Source of the DNA: Noviherbaspirillum cavernae
GTDB lineage: Bacteria; Pseudomonadota; Gammaproteobacteria; Burkholderiales; Burkholderiaceae_D
NCBI RefSeq assembly: GCF_003590875.1
Contig: NZ_QYUN01000002.1
Span: forward strand, 2,852,001 to 2,916,000
Length of the DNA stretch: 64,000 nucleotides
Direction: 5' to 3'
Shown: positions 41,789 through 46,445 of the stretch, piece after piece
Numbering within the stretch: the stretch's first letter is position 1
Layout: every line of letters begins with the position of its first letter
The notes under the pieces: generated by a model
What the model saw: the letters and a program-made list of their open reading frames with translations, nothing else
Databases searched by the model: none
What the model was told of the DNA's origin: nothing
Position numbers and translations under genes: made by a program

Positions 41789-41824
41789 TGTCATACGTTG
41801 GCATTTCGAACGAAGTTTGACCGC

Positions 41825-41842
41825 GTGGGCACAGGTGCCCAC
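41825..41842. repeat. Short palindromic intergenic repeat
   Basis: GTGGGCAC-AG-GTGCCCAC, a perfect 8-bp stem inside the context TGGGCACAGGTGCCCACCCT, a word common between genes in Burkholderiales from memory. First of three palindromic repeats packed between gcdH and the next gene. Confidence 0.5.
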
Positions 41843-41917
41843 CCTACGAAAATGCGTTCGGAATAACCGAACTGTTGGTGCATCCGCCAAGAAAACAAGC
41901 GATCGCACGGGGCGGTT

Positions 41918-42146
41918 TTGCCATTCCGCTGTGACGCTGCCGAAAAGTTGCGCGGCAAAGTGGATAAAGAAGCGAAACATGTTTGAGCCCGCAGGGCGAG
42001 TTGGTTTCGCTTCCCACTTTGTCGTGCAACTTTTCGGGAACCCCGAAGGGGCAGCGGCTGTGCGGTCGCCTTCTTTTGGTTACTTTTCTTGGCGAGACAA
42101 GAAAAGTGACTGGCTGCCGGGCCACCCCCGGCCTGTCTCCACGAAG
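41918..42146. repeat. Structured dispersed repeat, copy 1 (intact)
   Basis: About 229 bp. Parts: a long hairpin (41940-42037) with a 24-bp outer stem, a 5-base bulge, a 10-bp inner stem and a 25-base loop (conserved word TGTTTGAGC...GGCGAGTT); a CCCC-GAA-GGGG hairpin (42041-42051); a hairpin ACTTTTCTTG-GCGAGA-CAAGAAAAGT (42082-42107); and a GCCGGG/CCCGGC hairpin (42116-42132). A second copy at 44828 has the same parts with different stem sequences that still pair. No convincing protein is encoded. Confidence 0.75.
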
Positions 42147-42178
42147 TAGCAGTCAAATTAACGAAGGAAAGCCACTGG

Positions 42179-42198
42179 ATTCCGGCTCGCGCCGGAAT
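42179..42198. repeat. Short palindromic intergenic repeat
   Basis: ATTCCGGC-TCGC-GCCGGAAT, perfect 8-bp stem inside TGGATTCCGGCTCGCGCCGG, which belongs to the widespread proteobacterial 'CTGGATTCC...GGAATGAC' repeat type. It sits 54 bp before the next start codon. Confidence 0.55.
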
Positions 42199-42251
42199 GA
42201 CGGCGGTGTGCAAAAGACACCTCAAGGAAATAGAAAGCGACCAGAGGAACC

Positions 42252-43448
42252 ATGAACCTGAACTTCACCCCCGAAGAACTCACCTTCCGCACCGAAGTCC
42301 GCGACTTCGCCGCCCAATCCCTCCCTCCCGACATCCGCCACAAGGTCCTCAACGGCCTGATCCTCGAGCGCGACGACTACATCCGCTGGCAACGCATCCT
42401 GCATGCCAAAGGCTGGGGCGGCCCCGCATGGCGCAAGGAATTCGGCGGCACCGGCTGGAACGCCGTCCAGCAATACATCTTCGAAGAGGAATGCGCCGCC
42501 GCAGGCGCGCCCCGCACCATTCCGTTCGGGTTGAAAATGGTCGCCCCCGTCATCATGCAATTCGGCTCGCCCGCGCAGCAGCAACGCTTCCTGCCGAAAA
42601 TCCTCGCCGCCGAGGAATGGTGGTGCCAGGGCTACTCCGAACCCGGCGCCGGCTCCGACCTCGCTTCTCTGAAAACCCGCGCAGTAAAGGAAGGCGACCA
42701 CTACATCGTCAACGGCCAGAAAACCTGGACCACGCAAGGCCAGTACGCCGACTGGATCTTCTGTCTGGTGCGCACCGATACCGAAGTCAAGCCGCAGCGC
42801 GGCATTTCCTTCCTGCTGATCGACATGAAGACACCCGGCATCACCGTGCGTCCGATCATCACGATGGATGGCGCGCATGAAGTCAACGAGGTGTGGTTCG
42901 AAAACGTGCGCGTGCCGATCGAGAATCTGGTGGGCGAGGAAAACGCCAGCTGGACCTATGCCAAATTCCTGCTCGGCCACGAGCGCACCAACATCGCCGG
43001 CATCGGCATCGCCAAGCGCGAATTGGCGCGCCTGAAACGCGTGGCCACGCTGGAAACGAAGAACGGCAAGCCGCTGATCAAGGACCCGCTGTTCGCCGCA
43101 CGCATCGCGCAAATCGAGATCGACCTGACCGCGCTGGAGATCACCAACCTGCGCGTGCTGTCGGCCGAAGCCGAACGCCGCGCACCGGGACCGGAAGCCT
43201 CCATCCTCAAGATCAAGGGCACGGAAATCCAGCAAGCCATCACCGAACTGCTGACGCAGGCGGTCGGGCCGTATGCCCTGCCCCTGCGGCGCGAAGCGAT
43301 GGCAGCCGGCTATCAGGGCGATGCCGTCGGGCCGTTCTACGCAACGCCGCTGGCGGCGCATTATCTGAACATGCGCAAGCTGTCGATCTACGGCGGCTCC
43401 AACGAAATTCAAAAGAACATCATCGCGCAGATGATCCTGGGTCTGTAG
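42252..43448 (+). CDS. pimC: Acyl-CoA dehydrogenase, PimC-like large subunit
   Basis: 398 residues, beginning MNLNFTPEELTFRTEVRDFA. FAD/substrate signatures are WWCQGYSEPGAGSDLASLKT and DHYIVNGQKTWTTQGQYADW; it ends LSIYGGSNEIQKNIIAQMIL. The place where many dehydrogenases carry the catalytic Glu (YEG) is YGG here, as in other subunits of two-part acyl-CoA dehydrogenases. The partner gene follows nine bases later. The pair resembles the pimeloyl-CoA dehydrogenase of Rhodopseudomonas, which would feed glutaryl-CoA to GcdH; other substrates cannot be excluded. AGAGGA precedes the start. Confidence 0.75.
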   Translation: MNLNFTPEELTFRTEVRDFAAQSLPPDIRHKVLNGLILERDDYIRWQRILHAKGWGGPAWRKEFGGTGWNAVQQYIFEEECAAAGAPRTIPFGLKMVAPVIMQFGSPAQQQRFLPKILAAEEWWCQGYSEPGAGSDLASLKTRAVKEGDHYIVNGQKTWTTQGQYADWIFCLVRTDTEVKPQRGISFLLIDMKTPGITVRPIITMDGAHEVNEVWFENVRVPIENLVGEENASWTYAKFLLGHERTNIAGIGIAKRELARLKRVATLETKNGKPLIKDPLFAARIAQIEIDLTALEITNLRVLSAEAERRAPGPEASILKIKGTEIQQAITELLTQAVGPYALPLRREAMAAGYQGDAVGPFYATPLAAHYLNMRKLSIYGGSNEIQKNIIAQMILGL

Positions 43449-43457
43449 GAGGACACG

Positions 43458-44594
43458 ATGGACTTCACATTCACCGAAGAACAGCAGATGCTGCTGGACA
43501 CGACCCGTCGTTTCATCGCGAAGGATTACAGCTTTGAAACGCGTCGCAAGATCAGGGAAACATCGCCGGAAGGATTCAGCCGCGAAGTGTGGCAGGGACT
43601 GGCCGACCTCGGCTTGCTGTCGCTGAATGTACCGGAGGAAGACGGCGGCCTCGGCGGCGGCGCGATCGAGACCATGCTGGCGATGAACGCGATCGGCGAA
43701 GGCTTGCTATTGGAGCCTTATCTGCAAAGCGCGGTGCTGGCGACTAAAGCCATCGCGACGCTCGGCGATGAACAGCAGCGCGCCGAGTTGCTGCCCGCAC
43801 TGGCCGCCGGGGAAAAAATCGCGGCGCTGGCGCATGACGAACATGGCACGCGCTATGACTGGCGTGCGGTCGAGACGCGTGCCTGGCCGGTCGGCGACGG
43901 CTATGTGCTGACCGGCCACAAGAGCGTGATTCCGCACGGCACATCCGCCGATCTCCTCCTGATCACGGCACGCCTTGCGTCAATCGGCGCGCAGGGTCCG
44001 CTGGCGATCTTCGCCGTGCCGCGCGACTTGCCGGGTCTGCAATTGAGCTCGTATGCCACGGTGGATGGCGTGCGTGCCGCCGACATTGCATTGAACCAGG
44101 TCTTCGTGCCGGCAACTGCATTGCTCGATGCCGCTGCCGACACCGAAGCAAAACTCGAGGAAATTCTCGATGCGGGCCTCGCCGCGATCTGCGCGGAAGC
44201 GGTCGGCGCACTCGACAAGCTGCTTGCCGCAACCGTGGAATACGCGCGCAACCGCAAGCAGTTCGGCCAGCCGATCGGCAAGTTCCAGGCACTGCAGCAT
44301 CGCATGGCGGACATGGTGCTGCATATCGAGCAGGCACGCTCCATGAGTTATCTGGCTGCGGTGCGCTGCGCCGATCCCGATGTAGAAACGCGCCGCCGCG
44401 CGATGTCGGCCGCGAAAGTGGTGATCGGGCAGGCGTGCCGTTTCGTCGGGCAGCAGGCGGTGCAGCTGCATGGCGGGATGGGCGTGACTGACGAGCTGGA
44501 TGTCAGTCACTACTTCAAGCGCCTGATGGCGATCGAGATGCAGTTCGGGAGTACGGATCAGCATCTGGAGTTGTATGCGGCGCAGCTTGGCTGA
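43458..44594 (+). CDS. pimD: Acyl-CoA dehydrogenase, PimD-like small subunit
   Basis: 378 residues beginning MDFTFTEEQQMLLDTTRRFI. Conserved pieces: FSREVWQGLADLGLLSLNVP, RKQFGQPIGKFQALQHRMAD (family 'R.QFG.pi..fQ...h.lA') and AVQLHGGMGVTDELDVSHYF. The middle, normally the substrate loop, is more divergent (EHGTRYDWRAVETRAWPVGD). Directly behind the large subunit with AGGAGG upstream, so the two form a heteromeric enzyme. Function with pimeloyl-CoA is inferred from the pair and the nearby gcdH. Confidence 0.75.
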   Translation: MDFTFTEEQQMLLDTTRRFIAKDYSFETRRKIRETSPEGFSREVWQGLADLGLLSLNVPEEDGGLGGGAIETMLAMNAIGEGLLLEPYLQSAVLATKAIATLGDEQQRAELLPALAAGEKIAALAHDEHGTRYDWRAVETRAWPVGDGYVLTGHKSVIPHGTSADLLLITARLASIGAQGPLAIFAVPRDLPGLQLSSYATVDGVRAADIALNQVFVPATALLDAAADTEAKLEEILDAGLAAICAEAVGALDKLLAATVEYARNRKQFGQPIGKFQALQHRMADMVLHIEQARSMSYLAAVRCADPDVETRRRAMSAAKVVIGQACRFVGQQAVQLHGGMGVTDELDVSHYFKRLMAIEMQFGSTDQHLELYAAQLG

Positions 44595-44654
44595 GGATTG
44601 TTCTCGACAACTGCTCGTGCGTCAGAAGTTCTGGTGACGATCGTTCACGAATGT

Positions 44655-44797
44655 CACCCTCCCCTTCAAGGGGAAGGGTGCAGCAGGGAATTCGGACGGC
44701 ATGCCGTCTGCCTGCCGAACGATCTGCGTCTGCAGACGCAGATGCGCCCTGCAAGGGGAAATGGGGATGGGTTTCATTGATGCCGCGGGCCCATCCC
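44655..44797. repeat. Palindrome-rich intergenic repeat, family B copy 1
   Basis: Contains CACCCTCCCCTTCAAGGGGA with its near-palindromic continuation (44655-44680), GACGGCATGCCGTC (44695-44708), a perfect 22-bp palindrome centred at 44732/44733 (ATCTGCGTCTG and its mirror, 44722-44743) and GGGATGGG...CCCATCCC (44764-44797). The words CCCCTTCAAGGGGAAGG and ATGGGGATGGGTT recur in the copy at 54099. No gene. Confidence 0.6.
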
Positions 44798-45003
44798 AAC
44801 GATAGTGAAGCGCTGCGCTATGCGCGTTGTTGCCGTTCCGCTGTGAGCTGCCGAAGAAATGCGGCATGAAGCGGAAAAAGAAGCGCGACTTGTTTGAGCC
44901 GAAGGCGAGTTTGTCGCGCTTCCCGATTCATGCCGCATTTCTTCGGGAACCCGAAGGGCAGCGAGGTGCGGTCGCCTTTCTTTGGTTACTTTCTTTGGCG
45001 AGA

Positions 45004-46292
45004 TGTACAGACTCGGGACATGGGTAACAGATGTGCCGGGACATAGGTAACACATTTAATCGTCTCCTTTTGTCGTGCGCAAGTCGATCTGGCCGAAGCG
45101 ATGGTGCGCAAAGTACAGATCGAACACGCCGTCCTGCCGAGGATGCGGACGAGCCGCAATCGGATGCGTGTGCAAGGCATTGGAGACCCTGAAGCGGCGC
45201 CCCTGCACAACGATCTTGCCGTCCCACCCCACTACCTGTACCAGATCGCCATCGCGGTAATGAATCTCCGGCAATGTCTCCGGATAGACCCGCCGGCTGG
45301 GCCGGTAACGCGTCACCGGCGTGGCCAGTCCCAGCGCCTCATGCGGCCGTTCATGGTTGTACACTTGCCGCCAGCCATCGAACGCCTCCTGCGCCTCGTC
45401 CAGATCACGGAAGCATTGTCCTCGCAGCACTTCGCGCTTCAGGCTGCGATGGAAGCGTTCGTTCTTGCCATTGGTCTGCGGGTGCGCTGGACGACTATGG
45501 CTGATCTGGATGCCCAGCTGGATCAGCCAGATGGTCAGTCTGGTGATGCCGTGCTCATGTCGTGACGGGCTGCCCCAGGGGGAGCCGTTGTCGGCGTTGA
45601 TGCGGACCGGCATGCCATGGCGGCGAAACACATCCTGCAGTGCTGCCTGTACGTGTTCCCGGTTGGGGCGGGCACAGGCTGCAAGCGTCAGGTTGTAGCG
45701 CGAGTGGTCGTCAATGACGGTCAGCGGATGGCAGGTAGCCGAGGCCGTCTCGAAGCAGCCCTTGAAGTCCATTTGCCACAGATCGTTGGGTGCGGCATGC
45801 TCGAAACGTGTCCATGGCGTACTGTCTTCACTGGCCTGCGGATCGACCAGATGGTGCCGGTGCAGGATGCGAGTGATGGTGCTGGGTGTCGGGATGCCTT
45901 GATGGCCCAGATCGCGCAAGCGCCGCTGCAGCTTGCGTGCACCCCAGGCCGGATGTTCCTTGCGCAGTCCGACCACCAGCTCCTCGACGTCGGCATCCGT
46001 GCGCTGCGGGCTGTGCAATGGCCGGCGCGAGCGGTCAGCCATTCCGGCCAATCCCTCTTCGGCCACGCGGGCCAATAGCCTGTAGCCGGTCTTGCGGCTG
46101 ATGCCGAACTGCGCACATAGCGCACTCATGTTCACTCCCTCCTGACGGGCCAATGAGAGAAATTCCTGACGCAGAGTCATCGTGTCTATCGCTTTCCAGG
46201 ACATGGGTGGATGATCCTTCCGGCATCTTTGGGATACCGAAAGTGTTACCTATGTCCCGGCACAAGTGTCACCTATGTCTCCGGTCTATACA
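45004..46292. mobile_element. IS481-family insertion sequence, 1289 bp
   Basis: Ends are TGTACAGACT...(45004-45053) and the mirror of TGTATAGACC... (46243-46292), matching at 42 of 50 positions. The TGT...ACA termini and the repeated GGGACATRGGTAACA words are typical of IS481. One transposase gene fills it. GCGAGA stands directly outside both ends (44998-45003 and 46293-46298), a 6-bp target duplication. The element appears complete and possibly active. Confidence 0.9.
45056..46204 (-). CDS. IS481-family DDE transposase
   Basis: 382 residues. N-terminal helix-turn-helix (TLRQEFLSLARQEGVNMSAL, CAQFGISRKTGYRLLARVAE), then a retroviral-type integrase core: first Asp in NDLWQMDFKG, second Asp in RINADNGSPWG, and Glu in PQTNGKNERFHRSLKREVLR. 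It cuts and joins the element ends. GGAAGGA upstream of ATG 46204; ATG 46180 is a possible alternative. Intact, without frameshift. Confidence 0.92.
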   Translation of the reverse strand: MSWKAIDTMTLRQEFLSLARQEGVNMSALCAQFGISRKTGYRLLARVAEEGLAGMADRSRRPLHSPQRTDADVEELVVGLRKEHPAWGARKLQRRLRDLGHQGIPTPSTITRILHRHHLVDPQASEDSTPWTRFEHAAPNDLWQMDFKGCFETASATCHPLTVIDDHSRYNLTLAACARPNREHVQAALQDVFRRHGMPVRINADNGSPWGSPSRHEHGITRLTIWLIQLGIQISHSRPAHPQTNGKNERFHRSLKREVLRGQCFRDLDEAQEAFDGWRQVYNHERPHEALGLATPVTRYRPSRRVYPETLPEIHYRDGDLVQVVGWDGKIVVQGRRFRVSNALHTHPIAARPHPRQDGVFDLYFAHHRFGQIDLRTTKGDD

Positions 46293-46445
46293 GCGAGACA
46301 AAGAAAGTAACCGGCTGCCGGGCCGCCCCCGGCTTGCATCCACGAAGAGACACACCTATTACCAAAACAGGCAGTGTCAGCGGGTAGGAAAAATAGCGAC
46401 GAATGCAATCAGCGCGCTACCGACCACGCCACTGCCAACTTCATC

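What the first reader, a model, noticed from the sequence alone, without database searches (positions are those of the whole stretch)
41918..46347. Dispersed structured repeat whose stems covary between two copies
Copies at 41918-42146 and 44828-46347 share one architecture: 24-bp outer stem, 5-base bulge, 10-bp inner stem, 23-25-base loop with TGTTTGAGC and GGCGAGTT, a CCC(C)-GAA-(G)GGG hairpin, and a third stem around GCGAGA. Comparing the arms by hand, nine positions differ in the outer stem, two in the inner stem and two in the third stem. All 13 differences are matched by a compensating change on the other arm. This means the structure, not the sequence, is kept. It could be a structured RNA, a protein-binding DNA hairpin, or a mobile foldback element whose arms are corrected against each other. 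Conserved single-stranded words argue for a bound partner.
Basis: seen in the sequence. Interest (0 to 1): 0.85.

Follow-up and report, generated by a model that had tools for sequence, protein, structure and literature searches.

The report
Dispersed strand-specific covarying hairpin repeat
Between genes of this bacterium sit about ten copies of a repeat whose long stem changes freely in sequence but stays paired around a fixed tip, and similar repeats turn up in other bacteria and some phages, so a folded strand, not the sequence, seems to be what is kept.

Summary
The genome (a Noviherbaspirillum) holds 10 copies; 11 of 14 congeneric genomes have matches. On 55 copies 98.5% of stem cells pair and 24 of 36 pairs changed on both sides; slid controls pair 37-49%. 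Between the two window copies 13 outer/inner pairs differ: 10 double changes, 2 kept by wobble, 1 broken, so "all compensated" is slightly overstated. G-T exceeds A-C 55 to 11, and 39 to 17 outside the genus: one strand's fold is selected. Adjacent copies are head-to-head (24, against 2 tail-to-tail). No element lies between divergent genes (0 of 84 gaps); 27 of 51 tested ends lie 7-37 nt from an opposing stop codon. Terminator-like sites exceed shuffles on both strands. Whole doublets recur at unrelated sites. The tip TGTYTGAGC-GNA-GCGAGTT sits on unrelated stems in other Burkholderiales, gammaproteobacteria and phage contigs. No Rfam family reaches its gathering score. Best reading: a non-autonomous, REP-like mobile repeat acting at gene ends; its enzyme, and whether RNA or single-stranded DNA folds, are unknown.

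The parts
41918..42146 (+). Copy 1 of the repeat, between two co-directional acyl-CoA dehydrogenase genes
   Evidence: (122.2 bits, E 1.5e-25; its sequence is in the model)
41940..41963 (+). outer stem, 5' arm (pairs with 42014-42037)
41964..41968 (+). 5-nt bulge ATAAA
41969..41978 (+). inner stem, 5' arm (pairs with 42004-42013)
   Evidence: 9 of the 10 pairs counted
41980..41988 (+). conserved tip word TGTTTGAGC
41987..41997 (+). tip mini-hairpin GCCC-GCA-GGGC (GNA triloop closed by C-G)
41995..42002 (+). conserved tip word GGCGAGTT
42004..42013 (+). inner stem, 3' arm
   Evidence: 9 of the 10 pairs counted
42014..42037 (+). outer stem, 3' arm
42042..42052 (+). second hairpin CCCC-GAA-GGGG
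42054..42079 (+). terminator-like site on the + strand (stem 42054-42069, then CTTCTTTTGG)
   Evidence: 50 of 96 copies have such a site against 11.5 in shuffles
42078..42111 (+). third hairpin, apex GCGAGA at 42092-42097
42116..42132 (+). fourth, G+C-rich hairpin; in most copies (82 of 96) the - strand here is terminator-like, but not in copy 1 by the same criterion
   Evidence: searches find no such - strand site in copy 1
44828..45003 (+). Copy 2, 5' part up to the insertion
   Evidence: 121.6 bits; its sequence is in the model
44851..44874 (+). copy 2 outer stem 5' arm (pairs with 44923-44946; one mismatch G44871 x A44926)
44880..44889 (+). copy 2 inner stem 5' arm (pairs with 44913-44922)
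44891..44911 (+). copy 2 tip TGTTTGAGC-CGAA-GGCGAGTT
45004..46292 (-). IS481-family insertion sequence in the apex hexamer of copy 2's third hairpin; 6-bp duplication GCGAGA (44998-45003 and 46293-46298)
45056..46204 (-). IS481-family transposase gene, 382 aa
   Evidence: NF033577, 296.2 bits against cut-off 224
46293..46348 (+). Copy 2, 3' part after the insertion (rest of third hairpin, fourth hairpin, end)

Best explanation
A non-autonomous, dispersed extragenic repeat of the same general kind as REP/REPIN elements, found as single arms and as head-to-head pairs of arms. In each arm the outward-running strand folds into a long stem with a nearly invariant, GNA-capped tip, then further hairpins. 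SHOWN: the fold is under selection, on that strand; adjacent arms are head-to-head; whole doublets occur at unrelated sites of one genome; the elements sit at gene ends and none of those examined lies between divergent genes. INFERRED: a trans-acting factor recognises the tip on the folded strand (as single-stranded DNA or RNA) and needs only that the stem is paired, so stems drift by compensation; landing just past stop codons is tolerated or favoured because most copies carry terminator-like sites, so they can serve as the end of neighbouring transcription units. The mobilising enzyme is not identified.
For: Covariation: 98.5% paired, 24/36 pairs with double changes, score 0.579 vs 0.170 shuffled and at most 0.114 slid; in the 97 hits, chiefly outside the genus, 27 of 29 predicted pairs have double changes (alignment fitted to the model, some hits weak). 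At one site shared by species, 6 aligned copies: 18 of 33 pairs vary, all 18 with double changes. Strand: G-T 55 vs A-C 11; with a strand-neutral aligner 94 vs 25 in the genus and 39 vs 17 outside. GNA triloops closed by C-G on the same strand in 85 of 97 and 142 of 164 tips (the second set includes loci of the genus). Doublets: head-to-head 24, tail-to-tail 2, tandem 7; 30, 0 and 2 in other loci. Mobility: no match in 3 of 14 congeners; where both flanking genes were found, the window site is unoccupied in 7 of 10 genomes; doublets with shared ends near TTCTTCGGTGA...TCACCGAAGAA and unrelated flanks within G006, G004 and G010. Gene ends: 41 convergent, 43 co-directional, 0 divergent gaps, against 5/29/23 element-free gaps in the same loci (p 3e-11); 27 of 51 ends lie 7-37 nt from an opposing stop; terminator-like sites in 82 of 96 (- strand) and 50 of 96 (+ strand) copies vs 15.3 and 11.5 shuffled.
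Against: About half the copies counted in the genus are single (52 single, 50 doublet members). No target-site duplication was seen at doublet ends; no mobility gene stood out among the neighbours; neither Y1/RAYT nor reverse-transcriptase genes track presence. Single copies in co-directional gaps are 16 sense and 12 antisense, so a role in the upstream mRNA is not supported. No sigma-70-like promoter in three regions scanned. Terminator sites are pattern matches; the window's copy 1 has one only on the + strand, and a terminator needs no conserved tip. The 7-37 nt distance has no control, and 23 of 51 ends lie farther. Gene calls are simple ORF predictions, and loci were fetched because they hold the element.
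Confidence: 0.48

Rival explanations
1. A structured non-coding RNA gene family: each arm is transcribed outward and acts as an RNA through its conserved tip; copies are gene duplicates rather than parasites.
For: Strong covariation with G-T kept and A-C not; nearly invariant unpaired words; an element at one orthologous site in seven genomes.
Against: No promoter-like site in three scanned regions; no match in 3 of 14 congeners; doublets at unrelated locations look like mobility; no Rfam family at gathering score in the window, only weak matches in the loci tried.
Confidence: 0.2
2. Ordinary bidirectional terminators that have spread by duplication; the tip is incidental.
For: Terminator-like sites on both strands at recurrent places; position near stop codons and outside promoter gaps.
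Against: The tip is among the most conserved parts and recurs on unrelated stems in other orders; 14 of 96 copies lack a - strand site and 46 of 96 a + strand site.
Confidence: 0.14
3. A true RAYT-type REP/REPIN family mobilised as single-stranded DNA by a Y1 (tyrosine) transposase.
For: Inverted doublets, extragenic, strand-specific hairpins; RAYT-like matches in all 15 genomes of the genus, 8 of them over the family cut-off.
Against: No element in the 26 fetched loci round Y1/RAYT/RT genes; presence does not track the genes; arm of about 250 nt with several hairpins.
Confidence: 0.09
4. A foldback DNA element whose arms are corrected against each other (template switching or conversion), so that covariation is mutational rather than selected.
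For: Both arms change together, often at adjacent pairs.
Against: Correction would be strand-blind, but G-T exceeds A-C (55:11; 94:25 and 39:17).
Confidence: 0.07

Closest known systems
REP elements, BIMEs and REPINs (with RAYT transposases)
   Same: Dispersed, extragenic, palindromic, often as inverted doublets (passages of PMC2817692 seen describe REP doublets and RAYT genes always flanked by two REPs).
   Different: Arm of about 250 nt with several hairpins; the tip, not a foot, is nearly invariant; no element found by the fetched RAYT genes.
MITEs (miniature inverted-repeat elements)
   Same: Non-autonomous, several hundred bp, doublet ends are inverted repeats.
   Different: No target duplication seen; no related transposon stood out among neighbours; arms carry covarying stems under strand-specific selection.
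Intrinsic (Rho-independent) bidirectional terminators
   Same: G+C hairpin plus T-rich tract, on both strands in part of the copies, often just past stop codons.
   Different: Terminators need no conserved tip (general knowledge) and are not known to me to copy as doublets.
Integron attC sites (comparison recalled, not run)
   Same: Structure kept, sequence free, one strand folded (recalled).
   Different: attC core-site words were not searched for; what was found here are dispersed singles and doublets.
Insertion sequences that target palindromic repeats (for example IS1397 in E. coli, recalled)
   Same: The IS481-family element here sits in the hairpin apex in 3 of 3 copies.
   Different: Another host repeat and, from memory, another IS family.

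Membership tests
REP/REPIN (RAYT) | extragenic and dispersed | tested here: met
   a few copies overlap predicted ORFs, where some ORFs are read through the repeat itself
REP/REPIN (RAYT) | inverted doublets | tested here: met
   24 vs 2 and 30 vs 0; about half the copies in the genus are single
REP/REPIN (RAYT) | short single palindrome | tested here: not met
   core of about 120 nt, arm of about 250 nt, several hairpins
REP/REPIN (RAYT) | RAYT gene flanked by the repeat | tested here: not met
   0 matches in 26 loci (about 1.5 kb each side) round Y1, RAYT and RT genes; not every gene listed was fetched
REP/REPIN (RAYT) | GTAG-type foot sequence | not tested
   no call
MITE | terminal inverted repeats | tested here: met
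   TTCTTCGGTGA ... TCACCGAAGAA, with single-base variants, in doublets of G006, G004, G010; less clear in G013
MITE | target-site duplication | tested here: inconclusive
   none visible by eye; no same-species empty site to compare; one G006 flank is masked
MITE | related autonomous transposon | tested here: inconclusive
   no mobility gene seen among the 26 largest neighbour clusters except the inserted IS481-like one; genomes not searched for the ends alone
Structured RNA | covariation beyond shuffled and slid controls | tested here: met
   R-scape not available
Structured RNA | one strand favoured (G-T kept, A-C not) | tested here: met
Structured RNA | transcribed | not testable with these tools
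   no RNA-seq; no promoter-like site in three regions scanned
Any Rfam 15 family | match at gathering score | tested here: not met
   (window: 0); only matches below gathering scores, in one window stretch and nine loci
Intrinsic terminator | hairpin followed by T tract, more often than shuffles | tested here: met
   82 and 50 of 96 vs 15.3 and 11.5; of the two window copies only copy 1 was tested, with a + strand site only
Intrinsic terminator | stops transcription | not testable with these tools
   needs Term-seq or a reporter
Integron attC | inverse core site and core site words | not tested
   recalled comparison only

The most novel reading that the evidence does not exclude
An old and very widespread family of mobile hairpins, carried by chromosomes and phages of several phyla, whose only fixed part is a 19-nt tip (TGTYTGAGC-GNA-GCGAGTT) set on stems of any sequence. 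A conserved, still unknown factor would read the tip on one folded strand, and the hairpins would have been adopted as gene-end structures.
Probability: 0.3. Interest if true: 0.85.

Novelty: new variant of a known kind. Interest (0 to 1): 0.68.

Why it matters
A repeat whose stem is free but whose tip is nearly invariant is a direct lead to a factor that reads sequence and structure together. If the tip is read on single-stranded DNA, it points to a mobilising enzyme, possibly other than RAYT; if on RNA, to an RNA family for which Rfam has no match here. Either way it offers many natural compensatory variants for testing which strand folds in the cell and whether mobile repeats supply bacterial gene ends.

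Tried and rejected
Rfam scan of the window, of one window stretch at loose E-values and of nine element loci: nothing at gathering score. Literature by sequence and by subject: no description of this family recognised in the listings; one search's term was short and the 20 papers listed of 30 looked unrelated; only PMC2817692 was opened (six passages). PMC2718517 (Pseudomonas fluorescens repeat families) appeared in the listing and was not opened or compared. sRNA-Xcc1 was a recalled lead (listing only), dropped because Rfam scans did not match it. RAYT and reverse-transcriptase genes as drivers: presence does not track and no element lies in the 26 fetched loci. Recurrent neighbours (213 loci, the 26 largest clusters printed): several of the largest look, by eye, like ORFs read through the repeat; two look like real large families (a PAS-like protein, 12 loci; an ABC transporter, 9 loci); none looked like a mobility gene except an IS481-like transposase in 3 loci, the inserted ones. 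mRNA 3'-UTR role: 16 sense, 12 antisense single copies. Plasmid and phage collections: one Variovorax plasmid match to the third and fourth hairpins, one short Marinobacter match, none. A strict pattern gave 0 viral contigs; the shorter tip gave 87. Of the 80 listed, 18 have a net arm score of at least 13, about half of them near-identical to each other; the chance number was not computed. The non-proteobacterial chromosome hits (L237, L185, L245) are MAGs and could be contamination. A k-turn-like reading of the tip was only thought about. Special stability of cGNAg loops in DNA is recalled.

Rows dropped: one search kept nhmmer hits of at least 75 bits (117, of which 100 full); one search used 98 of those 100, one search used 96. 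One search kept 76 cores (at least 90 bits, at least 115 nt) and 59 after redundancy; of the 59 I aligned 53 plus the two window copies, leaving out L010 (the window's second copy) and five others by hand (L077:1990-2214, wrongly long; L123, L134, L109:2083-2205 and L121, for no recorded reason). One search was given 77 chosen loci; its 97 hits go down to E 0.27 and include two on the reverse of a better hit. L177 (Oxalobacteraceae OM1) may belong to the genus. One search's outside set has 91 other mismatches besides the G-T and A-C ones, the genus set 38. One search took 60 of the 100 full copies, had no null and is not used. Confidence in the best explanation was lowered from 0.50 to 0.48 after (no - strand terminator-like site in copy 1).
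Full report
WHAT IS THERE. Copy 1 (41918-42146) lies between two co-directional acyl-CoA dehydrogenase genes; copy 2 (44828-45003 and 46293-46348) lies between an acyl-CoA dehydrogenase gene and a convergent TctC-family gene and is split by a 1,289-bp IS481-family insertion sequence. Copy 1 with flanks folds at -134 kcal/mol on the + strand (z -8.1) and -109.6 on the - strand (z -5.0). Between the copies 13 outer and inner stem pairs differ: 10 by double change, 2 kept by G-T, 1 broken.

FURTHER COPIES. A model made from the matches, chiefly outside the genus, finds 10 copies in the genome. Of 14 other genomes of the genus, 11 have matches at E 0.001 and 3 (G003, G011, G014) have none.

COVARIATION. 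On 55 copies (53 of the 59 non-redundant cores, plus both window copies) 98.5% of 1,978 cells are standard pairs; 24 of 36 pairs have a change on both sides; the score is 0.579 against 0.170 in shuffles and 0.081-0.114 when partners are slid. Four pairs in the middle of the outer stem show all six pair types or nearly so. Copies at one site shared by seven genomes (both flanks shared) covary too: among the six of them in the alignment 18 of 33 pairs vary, all 18 with double changes, and 195 of 198 cells pair. Replacement of one copy by another at that site is not excluded.

ONE STRAND. G-T pairs number 55 and A-C 11 (p 4e-8 by cells; 52 to 11 when repeated contexts count once). With an aligner that treats all mismatches alike the counts are 94 to 25 in 97 copies of the genus and 39 to 17 in 50 copies elsewhere, besides 38 and 91 other mismatches; by copy 44 to 7 and 19 to 4. 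In the third hairpin of 55 copies it is 24 to 1. Substitution and arm correction in double-stranded DNA should be strand-blind, so this points to selection on the folded + strand (each arm read outward); a strand-specific mutation bias is not excluded. It fits RNA; single-stranded DNA is not excluded. Tips are GNA triloops closed by C-G on the same strand in 85 of 97 and 142 of 164 cases (the second set overlaps the genus). That such loops are especially stable in DNA is recalled.

DOUBLETS. Copies less than 500 bp apart are head-to-head 24 times, tail-to-tail twice and tandem 7 times in the genus, 52 counted copies there are single and 50 are doublet members. In the loci chosen elsewhere the pairs number 30, 0 and 2 (from 95 non-overlapping hits in 63 of the 77 loci given; partners count down to weak scores, one pair is 844 bp apart, and L177 may belong to the genus). 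In G006 (three places), G004 (two) and G010 (three) whole doublets recur with unrelated flanks and shared ends near TTCTTCGGTGA and TCACCGAAGAA; in one G006 place the outer flank is masked; G013 (four places) is similar but its ends run into tandem repeats. I saw no target duplication.

PLACE. Of 84 distinct gaps holding an element 41 are convergent, 43 co-directional, 0 divergent; element-free gaps of at least 50 bp in the same loci are 5, 29 and 23 (Fisher p 3e-11 for the missing divergent class). Orthologous gaps of different genomes count separately. Of 51 ends with a recognisable end motif and an opposing gene, 27 lie 7-37 nt from the stop codon, 1 overlaps a predicted gene and 23 lie farther, up to 947 nt, some perhaps through missed genes; there is no control for this distance. 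Terminator-like sites (at least 4 G-C pairs, then a T-rich tract) occur on the - strand in 82 of 96 copies and on the + strand in 50 of 96, against 15.3 and 11.5 in shuffles. These are pattern matches; the window's copy 1 has the + strand site only. Single copies are 24 convergent, 16 sense and 12 antisense, which speaks against a role as part of the upstream messenger.

HOW FAR IT REACHES. The tip pattern TGTYTGAGC-N(2-10)-GGCGAGTT is in 34 of 399 genomes of the order and 12 of 398 of the phylum, G000 among them both times; the control pattern was seen once in the order table. Some of these matches have no stem and are probably chance. In the convincing cases the stems share no evident sequence, for example A+T-rich ones in a gammaproteobacterium (L309, L318) and long near-perfect ones (L363). 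With model R2, 7 of 200 genomes of the phylum have matches, G000 included, and G512 has 9, with three head-to-head pairs. The 19-nt tip with a GNA loop is in 87 stretches of viral contigs; 18 of the 80 listed have arm scores of at least 13, about half of these near-identical. Hits in MAGs labelled Lachnospiraceae, Deltaproteobacteria and Bacteroides may be contamination.

MECHANISM. I read it as a non-autonomous mobile repeat whose tip is read on a folded strand by a factor in trans, with stems free to drift so long as they pair, and which by position and terminator-like sites can serve as a gene end. RAYT and reverse transcriptase do not track presence: RAYT-like matches are in all 15 genomes, the three without elements included; reverse transcriptase is missing from G009 and G013, which have elements. 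No element is in the 26 fetched loci of such genes.

KNOWN OR NEW. No Rfam family reaches its gathering score. None of the literature searches listed a description that I recognised; the library is open-access only, so absence there is weak, and the repeat families of PMC2718517 (listing only) were not compared. In kind it is closest to REP/REPIN doublets (PMC2817692, passages), but two tested defining features are not met, so I do not file it there.

Noticed in passing
window 45004-46292; L331, L332, L333: An IS481-family insertion sequence with three identical copies in the genome; all three sit in the apex hexamer of the repeat's third hairpin (GCGAGA or GCGAAG), two with an exact 6-bp duplication.
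   Followed up: yes
L331 / L004 (G000:C2:3168587-3170141): In the third copy the hexamers on the two sides differ (GCGAGA and GCGAAG) and the hairpin halves match less well, as if two split repeats had exchanged halves through their insertion sequences.
   Followed up: partly
L076:2594-3893: In G004 another transposase-like insertion (IS481-like in look, not scanned) splits a copy at a different place, near GTCG.
   Followed up: partly
window 41818-41845 and 42174-42205: Copy 1's gap also holds two other short palindromic stretches (GTGGGCAC..GTGCCCAC and ATTCCGGC..GCCGGAAT) that look like other dispersed repeats.
   Followed up: no
window 44655-44780: Upstream of copy 2 is a CTCCCCTTCAAGGGGA palindrome like those in the middle of many doublets, followed by other inverted repeats; copy 2 may be half of a broken doublet.
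   Followed up: partly
L397:1876 and similar viral contigs: In one recurring viral-contig type the tip word lies inside an open reading frame in a weaker palindrome, with variable sequence on one side.
   Followed up: partly
G006 doublets L081, L083, L084: The short middle of the doublet is inverted in L081 relative to the arms, perhaps by recombination between the two CTCCCC palindromes.
   Followed up: partly
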